DNA of 64,000 nt, taken from Solirubrobacterales bacterium (lineage in GTDB: Bacteria > Actinomycetota > Thermoleophilia > Solirubrobacterales > 70-9). A program made the position numbers and the translations under genes. The stretch is taken from contig JAGQUV010000004.1 of NCBI GenBank assembly GCA_020438295.1, positions 1-64,000 of the forward strand, written 5' to 3'. Positions 23,575 through 26,320 of the stretch are shown piece after piece. Below the pieces are notes generated by a model that searched no databases, was not told the origin of the DNA, and was given only the letters and a program-made list of their open reading frames with translations. Each line of letters begins with the position of its first letter. The first letter of the stretch is position 1.

Positions 23575-24399
23575 CTAGCGCTTGGAGAACTGGGGCCGTT
23601 TGCGGGCCTTCTTCAGGCCGGCCTTGCGCCGCTCCTTGGCCCTCGCATCGCGGGTCAGGAAGCCGCGGCGCTTGAGTTCGGAACGCAGCTCGGGATCGAC
23701 CTCGGTCAGGGCCCGGGCGATGCCGTGCCTGACCGCACCGGCCTGGCCGCTGATACCGCCACCGTGGACCCGGATCCGGAGATCGACGTTCGATTCGTAG
23801 CCGGTGGCCACCAGCGGTGAGCTGACGATGGTGCGATGCCGGGGGCGCGGGAAGTATTCGTCGATCTCCCGGTCGTTGACCGTGATCTTTCCTTCGCCGG
23901 CCAGCACGATCACCCTGGCGACCGACCGCTTGCGTTTTCCGGTCGCGGTGAACCTGGCGTCCTTGGCGATCCTGGCAGGAGCCGGCCGGGGCGGTTCGGC
24001 ATCTTCGTCGCCCTGTTCGGCGTCGGCCGCCTCGCGCTCGGCGCGCTCCTCCTCTTCCGCCTCCAGACGCGCCCTCTGCTCGGTGCTGAGCTCGGCCTCC
24101 GGCTCTACCGAGATCGGCTCCAGGTCCGCACCGGGCGGTAGGTCGGACCCGCCGGTTTCCGGCACTTCGGACTCGGAGATCTCGACCTCCGCATCCTCGC
24201 CGGCGGAAACCTCTACTTCGACGTCCTGGTCGGCGGAGACCTCTACTTCGACGTCCTGGTCGGCGGAGATTTCCACCTCCACCGCTTCTCCGGCCGGGAC
24301 TTCGACCTCGACCTCTTCCGCGACCGCCTCGGGGTCGGCCGCCGGAGCCTCTTCGTCGCGCTCGGTTTCTGCGTTCTGGTCGAGTTCTTCGTCGCTCAC
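23575..24399 (-). CDS. rpsI: 30S ribosomal protein S9 with long acidic N-terminal extension
   Basis: A 274-aa protein in which residues about 145-274 are a normal S9: [16 protein letters not shown], then [19 protein letters not shown] and the C-terminal [12 protein letters not shown] that reaches the tRNA anticodon. The first 140 residues are very acidic, dominated by Glu, Asp, Val and Ala, and contain near-identical repeats of a [10 protein letters not shown] unit. S9 is normally about 130-170 aa, so the extension is unusual. The ATG overlaps the rplM stop as ATGA. Confidence 0.95.
24209..24268. repeat. Two identical 30-bp tandem repeats inside rpsI
   Basis: The 30-base unit is repeated exactly, and encodes ten residues of the acidic S9 extension in frame. 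Flanking units are diverged versions of the same repeat, which points to growth by duplication. Confidence 0.85.
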
Positions 24400-24830
24400 T
24401 TCTCGATCTCCATCGGCTCGGGCTGCTGGGCCTGGTGGGGGTGGTCCGGTCCGGCGTACACCTTGAGTTTGAGCAGCTGCTGGCGCGAGAGCCGGTTGCG
24501 GGGCAGCATGCCCCTGACCGCCTTGCGGATCACTTCCTCGGGCTGGCGCTCCAGCATCTCGCCCAGGGTGCGCGAACGGATGCCGCCGGGATAACCGCTG
24601 TGGCGCCAGTAGGTCTTGGAGTTCAGCTTGTCCCCGGTCACCCGGACCTTTTCGGCGTTAACCACGACCACGAAGTCGCCGGTGTCGATGTGGGGCGTGT
24701 AATCGGGCTTTCGCTTGCCACGCAGGACATCGGCCAGCTGGGTCGCCATGCGACCGAGGGTCTGCCCTTCGGCGTCGACGACGTACCAGTCTCTCTGGCG
24801 ATTGGCGGGGGTGGCTACGAATGTCTTCAT
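24396..24830 (-). CDS. rplM: 50S ribosomal protein L13
   Basis: A 144-aa primary rRNA-binding protein of the large subunit. It starts [20 protein letters not shown] and retains [22 protein letters not shown], the GYPGGIR loop and [14 protein letters not shown]. The ATG at 24830 is the family start; longer in-frame readings go into the intergenic region. It couples to rpsI via ATGA. Its promoter must lie in the 24831-24960 region, which is divergent to the riboswitch-controlled gene. Confidence 0.96.
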
Positions 24831-24934: not shown

Positions 24935-24964
24935 TCAACACCTGGCCGGCCGACCCCCTATACT
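24935..24964 (+). promoter_or_regulatory. Candidate promoter for the riboswitch/M23 transcript
   Basis: A TATACT -10 element at 24959-24964 is preceded at 18 bases by TCAACA (24935-24940), a moderate -35. Transcription would start near 24971, just before the riboswitch. Confidence 0.5.
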
Positions 24965-24978
24965 GCCGCAGTCGATAC

Positions 24979-25113
24979 GCCTAACCCGGGCCGGGACAAC
25001 GGACGGGGCGGAGGAACCAACGGGGAAAATTTTCCCCAAGGGGCGAATCGGAGGCAGTCACTGCTCCGTAGCGCGACTCTTTCAGCGCGAGCCCGCCAGC
25101 TAACTCCGCAGGC
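24979..25113 (+). promoter_or_regulatory. Cyclic di-AMP riboswitch (ydaO/yuaA type)
   Basis: The leader contains the conserved blocks of the ydaO/yuaA RNA in order: GGAGGAACC at 25010-25018, AAGGGGCGAATC at 25038-25049, and CCCGCCAGCTAACTCCGCAG at 25092-25111. Between them lie the expected hairpins, including a perfect 16-base palindrome (25022-25037) and a GGAGGCAG/CTGCTCC stem. The closing GCCT (24979) and AGGC (25110) ends can pair as P1. The element ends 16 bases before the TTG start of a cell-wall endopeptidase, a well-known target of this class in actinobacteria. No terminator separates them, so control of ribosome access is plausible. Confidence 0.9.
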
Positions 25114-25129
25114 AGCAGAGAAAGAGCAC

Positions 25130-26320
25130 TTGATCGCCAGCCATGCAAAAACAGTCTTCGCCGTCGCCCTGACGGCGTTTCTCACCGCCTCGGTGCCGGC
25201 GTTCGCGGCGACCACGGCCGGGGGCGGACTGCAGGTTCCCGGCGTCCCCGAGATCAAGAACGTGGTCTGTCTCTCAGGCTGCACCAAGGTCCGGGCGACC
25301 ACTCCCGGCGGCACGATCCAGCTCACCGGCACCGAGATGGACTCGACCAGGCTGGTCAGGTTCGCCGGCAAGACGGGCGCGGTCAAGGTCAAGCCCGACC
25401 TGACCAGTTCGACCAGGGTCGAGGCCACCGTCCCACCGCAGGCGGTCACCGGCAGGGTCCGCGTGGCCACGGTCAGCGGCACGTTCTCGGCCCCGTCGCC
25501 CCAGACCCTCTACGTCGGCCCGGCCGGAAAGGTCACGACCGGCAAGCTCAGCGTGACCGACGCCGCGATCAGCGCGTCCAGGACCTTTCAGTTCGGGGTC
25601 AGGAAACCGACCCTCCGCTACGTGATCTCCGGGGCCCGGCCCTCGTTCGACCTGCGGATCGACGTCGCCAGCAAGTCGGGTGAGGTCGTGCGCAGCCTGT
25701 TTCGCCGGGACGTGGAGTCGGGCTCATCCCAGACGGTGACCTGGAACGGCAAGACCACCGACAAGAAGCCGGCCCCCAATGGCGCCTACAGCTACGTGAT
25801 CCGGGGCGCCGATGGAACTCCCGCTTCGATCTCGGCCCGGATCAGCAGGATCCGCAAGCGGGCCGCCCGGTCGAAAAAGGTCGCCGACCCGTTCAGCTTC
25901 AAGATCTTCGGCTACTCGTTCCCGCTCAGGGGCCCCCACTCCTATGGAGACGGGATCGGCGCCGGCCGCGGTCACCAGGGGGTGGACCTGCTCGCCGACT
26001 GTGGCACGCCGATTGTCGCTGCGCGCGGGGGCACGGTCTACTACAACGACTACCAGGCCGGTGGTGCGGGCAACTACCTGGTGATCAACCTGCGCGGAGC
26101 CGGCAAGCGGAGCCAGGTCTACATGCACATGCCGGTCAGGTCCCGGTTCAAGGTCGGCCAGAAGGTCAAGACCGGACAGCGGATCGGATCGGTCGGCACC
26201 ACGGGACGCAGCACCGCCTGCCACCTTCACTTCGAACAGTGGACCGGGCCCGGCTGGTACCAGGGCGGAACCTTCATGGATCCGCTCGGCGCGCTCAAGC
26301 GCTGGGACCGCTACAGCTGA
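25130..26320 (+). CDS. Secreted M23 peptidoglycan endopeptidase under riboswitch control
   Basis: A 396-aa exported zinc endopeptidase of the LytM/M23 family, expected to cut peptide cross-links in the wall. A signal peptide (residues 1-26, ending VPAFAA) is followed by an IPT/TIG-like Ig domain with a Cys pair (CLSGC), a FlgD-like Ig domain (about 145-220, SSQTVTWNGK, PNGAYSYVI) and the M23 domain. Zinc ligands are visible in GHQGVDLLADCG and HLHFEQW. The TTG at 25130 gives the signal peptide immediately and has a purine-rich AGAGAAAGAG upstream; longer readings would translate the riboswitch. Confidence 0.9.
   Translation: MIASHAKTVFAVALTAFLTASVPAFAATTAGGGLQVPGVPEIKNVVCLSGCTKVRATTPGGTIQLTGTEMDSTRLVRFAGKTGAVKVKPDLTSSTRVEATVPPQAVTGRVRVATVSGTFSAPSPQTLYVGPAGKVTTGKLSVTDAAISASRTFQFGVRKPTLRYVISGARPSFDLRIDVASKSGEVVRSLFRRDVESGSSQTVTWNGKTTDKKPAPNGAYSYVIRGADGTPASISARISRIRKRAARSKKVADPFSFKIFGYSFPLRGPHSYGDGIGAGRGHQGVDLLADCGTPIVAARGGTVYYNDYQAGGAGNYLVINLRGAGKRSQVYMHMPVRSRFKVGQKVKTGQRIGSVGTTGRSTACHLHFEQWTGPGWYQGGTFMDPLGALKRWDRYS

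What the first reader, a model, noticed from the sequence alone, without database searches (positions are those of the whole stretch)
24959..25170. c-di-AMP riboswitch controlling an M23 wall endopeptidase
All three conserved ydaO/yuaA sequence blocks are present in order, with the expected hairpins, directly before a TTG-started secreted endopeptidase. Such riboswitches upstream of wall hydrolases are known in actinobacteria; the instance here is seen in sequence. P1 ends 16 bases before the start and no terminator intervenes, which suggests control of translation. The divergent rplM-rpsI operon lies beside it.
Basis: partly seen in the sequence, partly recalled or inferred. Interest (0 to 1): 0.7.

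Follow-up and report, generated by a model that had tools for sequence, protein, structure and literature searches.

The report
c-di-AMP switch on wall-enzyme gene
A known kind of RNA sensor for the bacterial messenger c-di-AMP sits directly in front of a cell-wall-cutting enzyme gene, and comparison with about 120 related copies suggests that it works by folding the ribosome's landing site into a knot so that the enzyme is not made when the messenger is plentiful.

Summary
Rfam RF00379 (c-di-AMP/ydaO aptamer) matches window 24968-25129(+) with 74.6 bits (cut-off 38, E 1.8e-15), full length, immediately before a TTG start at 25130. The gene encodes a secreted M23 endopeptidase with HxGxD and HxH motifs. 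The organism is a Solirubrobacterales (Thermoleophilia) MAG with four such aptamers and one diadenylate cyclase gene. All 61 genomes searched in its order have aptamers, mostly before wall-hydrolase genes. A -10 box (TATACT, 24959-24964) abuts the aptamer, so the leader is little more than the aptamer; no terminator was found. The aptamer's own pseudoknot (25077-25083 with 25120-25126) ends 3 nt before the start codon. Across 127 distinct relatives, loop and tail pair better than in any of 300 reshuffles. In 81% of scored loci the start codon lies within 14 nt of the pseudoknot (16% expected). Best-supported mechanism: a translational OFF switch in which ligand-stabilised docking buries the ribosome landing site. 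Ligand binding and switching are not tested here. The RNA class, the wall-hydrolase targets and the idea of this mechanism (C. glutamicum nlpC) are published, so this is a new member of a known kind. Side finds: AUC/AUU start codons in a sister target, and a 44-aa membrane microprotein.

The parts
24935..24964 (+). sigma-70-like promoter: TCAACA - 18 nt - TATACT (-10 at 24959-24964); predicted transcription start about 24971
   Evidence: 9 of 12 matches; 0.0 +/- 0.2 expected in shuffles of the 800-nt region; TATACT present in 16 of 16 orthologous leaders printed
24968..25129 (+). c-di-AMP (ydaO/yuaA) riboswitch aptamer, RF00379
   Evidence: 74.6 bits, E 1.8e-15, full length
24979..24981 (+). 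P1 5' strand (GCC), pairs with 25111-25113
   Evidence: structure line
25111..25113 (+). P1 3' strand (GGC), ends 16 nt before the start codon
   Evidence: structure line; sequence
25077..25083 (+). pseudoknot 5' strand CUCUUUC in the hairpin loop
   Evidence: same place as ACUCCUUCG in the crystallised ydaO RNA sequence (PMC5393176; aligned)
25120..25126 (+). pseudoknot 3' strand GAAAGAG, overlapping the ribosome-binding region, 3 nt before the start codon
25130..26320 (+). secreted M23 peptidoglycan endopeptidase (TTG start, signal-peptide-like N-terminus, FlgD-type Ig domain, M23 domain at residues 281-372)
25973..26230 (+). stretch spanning the M23 zinc/catalytic motifs HQGVD (residues 282-286) and HLH (365-367)
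24396..24830 (-). rplM (ribosomal protein L13), divergent neighbour
   Evidence: (translation [27 protein letters not shown]...), identified by recognition of the sequence
23575..24399 (-). rpsI (ribosomal protein S9 with long acidic N-terminal extension); rpsI lies on the opposite strand upstream of 27 of 29 related M23 loci

Best explanation
A c-di-AMP riboswitch that turns translation OFF. Transcription starts at the upstream edge of the aptamer, so nearly the whole 5' leader is aptamer. When c-di-AMP is high, two molecules bind the aptamer, close P1 and stabilise docking of the 3' tail (GAAAGAG, 25120-25126) onto the hairpin loop (CUCUUUC, 25077-25083). This pseudoknot occupies positions -10 to -4 before the TTG start, so the 30S subunit cannot load and the M23 wall endopeptidase is not made. 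When c-di-AMP falls, the tail is released and the enzyme is translated. Shown here: the aptamer, the promoter-like site at its edge, absence of a terminator, pseudoknot complementarity and covariation, start-codon proximity, wall-hydrolase targets, and a diadenylate cyclase gene. Inferred from the known class: ligand identity, the OFF direction, and ligand-dependence of the docking.
For: RF00379, 74.6 bits; promoter at the aptamer edge, no terminator; loop-tail pairing score 17.0 against 14.9 +/- 0.21 for tails exchanged among 127 distinct order-level aptamers, maximum of 300 shuffles 15.5; for the 51 loops not CUCUUUC, 15.9 against 12.6 +/- 0.32; M23 orthologs with GAAAGAG directly followed by ATG in L064 and L069, and with the pseudoknot running through the TTG in L070 and L071; 95 of 117 loci have the first in-frame start within 14 nt of the pseudoknot, null 16%; best anti-SD duplex overlaps the pseudoknot strand in 89 of 101; downstream proteins are mostly M23, PG-binding, DPBB, transglycosylase; DAC domain gene in the genome; PMC9960051: the C. 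glutamicum nlpC c-di-AMP riboswitch lowers translation, not transcript level, and its authors propose a CTCC:GGAG pseudoknot at the RBS; PMC10907184 places ydaO among riboswitches that dock the expression platform.
Against: No binding or expression data. Streptomyces rpfA, with the same aptamer class, is reported to act by transcription termination without a canonical terminator (PMC10117811 and PMC9960051). Single-strand folding of the leader does not show an unusually stable fold (z -0.02). In the M23 orthologs the Shine-Dalgarno match is weak and very close to the start, so the sequestered element may be the initiation region rather than a strong SD. Shuffle tests do not correct for relatedness of the sequences.
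Confidence: 0.78

Rival explanations
1. The same aptamer controls transcription: ligand-bound RNA causes premature termination, either factor-independent without a canonical hairpin (as reported for S. coelicolor rpfA) or Rho-dependent once translation is blocked.
For: Reported for Streptomyces rpfA. Blocking translation could expose the message to Rho in any bacterium.
Against: No terminator-like site between aptamer and gene. The start codon follows the aptamer at once, leaving no room for a separate expression platform. The C. glutamicum homologue does not change transcript levels with c-di-AMP.
Confidence: 0.15
2. The RNA is a degenerate, non-functional relic of the family.
For: One non-standard pair in P1 (C24978-A25114). 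Its score is lower than two of the other three copies in this genome.
Against: 74.6 bits, full length, core nearly identical to the crystallised RNA. Intact pseudoknot, and aptamer plus promoter conserved in orthologs down to about 40% protein identity.
Confidence: 0.03
3. The leader senses another ligand (a variant of the aptamer with changed specificity).
For: Ligand pockets cannot be tested by sequence alone, and variant riboswitches exist in other classes (general knowledge).
Against: The conserved core matches the consensus and the T. tengcongensis crystal RNA. Targets are the wall hydrolases typical of actinobacterial c-di-AMP riboswitches. A diadenylate cyclase gene is present.
Confidence: 0.03

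Closest known systems
c-di-AMP (ydaO/yuaA) riboswitch, Rfam RF00379, e.g. B. subtilis ydaO/kimA and the ydaO crystal structures 4QLM/4QLN
   Same: Full covariance-model match, same core blocks, same pseudoknot position
   Different: No terminator expression platform; the pseudoknot strand lies at the ribosome-binding region; the target is a wall hydrolase, not a K+ transporter
Corynebacterium glutamicum nlpC c-di-AMP riboswitch (PMC9960051)
   Same: Actinobacterial, wall-peptidase target, no terminator, OFF control of translation, proposed pseudoknot between an aptamer strand and the RBS
   Different: Other enzyme (M23 instead of NlpC/P60). Here the pseudoknot proposal gains comparative support, and the pseudoknot abuts or overlaps the start codon
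Streptomyces rpfA c-di-AMP riboswitch and six other S. coelicolor wall-hydrolase leaders (PMC10117811)
   Same: Same aptamer class before wall hydrolases
   Different: Reported to act by transcription termination.
preQ1-III / cobalamin (env8) docking riboswitches (PMC10907184)
   Same: Ligand promotes a long-range loop-tail helix that occludes the RBS
   Different: Unrelated aptamers and ligands

Membership tests
RF00379 c-di-AMP riboswitch | Covariance-model score above the gathering threshold | tested here: met
   74.6 bits against 38, E 1.8e-15
RF00379 c-di-AMP riboswitch | Conserved core blocks and P1 | tested here: met
   one non-standard outer P1 pair
RF00379 c-di-AMP riboswitch | Pseudoknot between hairpin loop and 3' tail | tested here: met
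   25077-25083 with 25120-25126, 7 Watson-Crick pairs; covariation across relatives
RF00379 c-di-AMP riboswitch | 5' leader of a gene of the c-di-AMP regulon (wall remodelling or ion/osmolyte transport) | tested here: met
   M23 endopeptidase
RF00379 c-di-AMP riboswitch | Organism encodes c-di-AMP synthesis | tested here: met
   DAC domain gene, E 1.2e-27
RF00379 c-di-AMP riboswitch | Binds c-di-AMP | not testable with these tools
   needs in-line probing or ITC
Transcription-terminating ydaO/kimA-type expression platform | Intrinsic terminator between aptamer and gene | tested here: not met
   none; start codon adjoins the aptamer
Translational docking/occlusion riboswitch | Ribosome-binding region lies in a helix formed with the aptamer | tested here: met
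   (by sequence complementarity and covariation)
Translational docking/occlusion riboswitch | The helix forms in a ligand-dependent way and lowers translation | not testable with these tools
   needs probing and reporter assays

The most novel reading that the evidence does not exclude
In Solirubrobacterales the c-di-AMP aptamer has become a one-piece translational switch used as a standard module. The aptamer is nearly the entire leader, its pseudoknot strand is the ribosome landing site and in some orthologs runs into the start codon, and it governs a multi-gene wall-remodelling regulon. That regulon includes NlpC/P60-like genes that start at AUC or AUU and an unknown 44-residue membrane protein.
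Probability: 0.6. Interest if true: 0.5.

Novelty: new member of a known kind. Interest (0 to 1): 0.36.

Why it matters
How actinobacterial c-di-AMP riboswitches act without a terminator is unsettled: transcription termination is reported in Streptomyces and translation control in Corynebacterium. The order-wide pattern found here, a covarying pseudoknot placed on the start codon, gives a specific and directly testable answer, supports the pseudoknot proposed for C. glutamicum nlpC, and defines a compact set of leaders suited to probing. It also links c-di-AMP to a large wall-hydrolase regulon in a poorly studied lineage.

Tried and rejected
Single-strand folding of the leader was uninformative (z -0.02) because the aptamer needs a pseudoknot and the DNA is GC-rich. 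A MAFFT alignment of 77 loop-to-tail segments (A1) did not put the tails in register because linker lengths differ, so pair counting on it was not used and an alignment-free exchange test was run instead. The first start-codon parser picked chance helices in a few loci; the search range was narrowed. Terminator control was considered and rejected for lack of any terminator. The primary papers on the aptamer structure and on rpfA were not held, so their content is cited through PMC5393176, PMC10117811, PMC9960051 and PMC10907184. The start codon of infC in this genome was looked at as a comparison for AUC/AUU starts but was ambiguous.

Full report
What is there. The only Rfam match in the window is RF00379, the c-di-AMP (ydaO/yuaA) aptamer, at 24968-25129 on the + strand: 74.6 bits against a gathering score of 38, E 1.8e-15, full length. 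The protein (396 aa) has a signal-peptide-like N-terminus, an FlgD-type Ig domain and a Peptidase_M23 domain (E 2.6e-22) with the zinc-site motifs HQGVD and HLH. A promoter-like site TCAACA-18-TATACT ends at 24964, which puts the transcript start near 24971, and no terminator-like site was found. rplM and rpsI are divergent on the other side.

Where it is. The genome is a 2.15-Mb MAG in 165 contigs. The closest named relatives of the M23 protein are Thermoleophilia/Solirubrobacterales MAGs (83% and 57% identity). The genome has four RF00379 copies: besides the window gene, one before another M23-type gene (cut by the contig end), one before an NlpC/P60-like gene, and one before a protein that reads like a PG-binding/RlpA-type (DPBB) enzyme (the two assignments other than NlpC/P60-like are by reading the sequence). 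It has one diadenylate cyclase gene. All 61 genomes sampled from the same order carry 2-11 copies, against 55 of 296 across the phylum. Of 104 downstream proteins scanned, 51 hit M23, 20 PG_binding_1, 16 DPBB (lytic transglycosylase), 8 PG_binding_3 and 4 transglycosylase-like (this set is enriched for M23 because one search was an M23 search). The order therefore uses the switch mainly for peptidoglycan-active secreted enzymes.

How it probably works. The hairpin loop before the last conserved block contains CUCUUUC (25077-25083), complementary over seven Watson-Crick pairs to the tail GAAAGAG (25120-25126). The crystallised ydaO RNA, whose sequence is given in PMC5393176, has ACUCCUUCG and CGAAGGAG at the same places. 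In relatives the two strands change together: CUUCUUC/GAAGAAG, CUCCUUU/GAAGGAG, CUCUUUUCG/CGAAAAGAG, UCACUCG/CGAGUGA, GCUUCUCU/AGAGGAGC and others. Exchanging tails among 127 distinct order-level aptamers lowers the mean pairing score from 17.0 to 14.9 (sd 0.21; best of 300 shuffles 15.5). For the 51 loops that are not CUCUUUC the drop is from 15.9 to 12.6 (sd 0.32). This control does not remove relatedness, but many different variants of the helix are seen.

The tail is also where translation begins. In 117 order-level loci with a homologous open frame, the first in-frame ATG/GTG/TTG lies within 14 nt of the pseudoknot in 95, against 16% expected from in-frame points further downstream; the best anti-SD duplex overlaps the pseudoknot strand in 89 of 101. 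Most of the exceptions are the AUC/AUU-started genes and the short-ORF microproteins described below. In orthologs of the window gene the contact is extreme: GAAAGAG directly followed by ATG (L064, L069), or a ten-pair helix that includes the TTG itself (L070, L071). In several other families of the phylum the start lies 50-270 nt away, and in a Streptomyces-like genus mostly 16-18 nt away with a separate SD between. Aptamer and M23 gene are found together in at least 27 of 29 related M23 loci, rpsI lies divergently upstream in 27 of 29, and TATACT precedes the aptamer in all 16 leaders printed. The whole unit therefore appears to be inherited as a block.

The simplest reading is that c-di-AMP binding stabilises docking of the tail onto the loop and so hides the initiation region: a translational OFF switch with no separate expression platform. 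The aptamer, complementarity, covariation, position and missing terminator are shown here. Ligand, direction and ligand-dependence are inferred from the class.

What is known. c-di-AMP riboswitches before actinobacterial wall genes are established. In C. glutamicum the nlpC riboswitch was shown to lower expression at the level of translation, and its authors proposed a CTCC:GGAG pseudoknot at the RBS (PMC9960051). For Streptomyces rpfA transcription termination is reported (PMC10117811). A review lists ydaO with riboswitches that dock an RBS-bearing expression platform (PMC10907184). The present case is therefore a new member of a known kind. What is added is comparative support for the pseudoknot mechanism, and an order in which the pseudoknot abuts or includes the start codon.

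Side observations. In the genus of the window, NlpC/P60-like genes under the same switch have AAGGAG followed six or seven nt later by AUC or AUU in frame. In most of them the UAA of the conserved CAGCUAAC block is the in-frame stop just upstream, and in sister copies UUG or AUG sits at or near the same position. Two copies (L164, L166) contain no ATG, GTG or TTG in the first 400 nt. Where one base is inserted between SD and AUC, the AUC stays in the gene's frame. This points to natural AUC/AUU initiation. Ten of 18 genomes of the genus (not this one) carry, right behind such an aptamer, a 44-aa single-pass membrane protein with no Pfam or NCBIfam match, followed in the examples read by a strong hairpin.

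Noticed in passing
L002:1644-1652 (own genome C143) and L145, L147, L148, L154, L159, L164, L166, L175, L189, L195, L198, L199, L203, L206, L209: Riboswitch-controlled NlpC/P60-like genes appear to start at AUC (AUU in L164 and L175), 6-7 nt after AAGGAG. Sister copies have UUG (L173, L180) or AUG (L192-L194) at or near the same place; L164 and L166 have no canonical start in the first 400 nt.
   Followed up: partly
L021, L023, L108, L125, L161 and L215-L224: A 44-aa single-pass membrane protein (MDLDRHVVRPMTEETG...AIALPLLVRVFGL) lies directly behind a c-di-AMP aptamer in 10 of 18 genomes of the genus; in the five read, a strong hairpin follows the stop codon. No Pfam or NCBIfam match.
   Followed up: partly
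L026 and L143: Two further short membrane ORFs (48 aa and 40 aa) directly behind c-di-AMP aptamers, unrelated in sequence and without Pfam match.
   Followed up: no
window 23575-24399 (-): rpsI carries a long acidic N-terminal extension with near-repeats ([29 protein letters not shown]...), unusual for ribosomal protein S9.
   Followed up: no
L049, L055 (other family of the phylum): c-di-AMP aptamer upstream of what reads like a TrkH-type K+ transporter (MRARVVVGVNSGVVLALGLALLCPLALSLLYGDGS...), unlike the wall-enzyme targets of the window's order.
   Followed up: no
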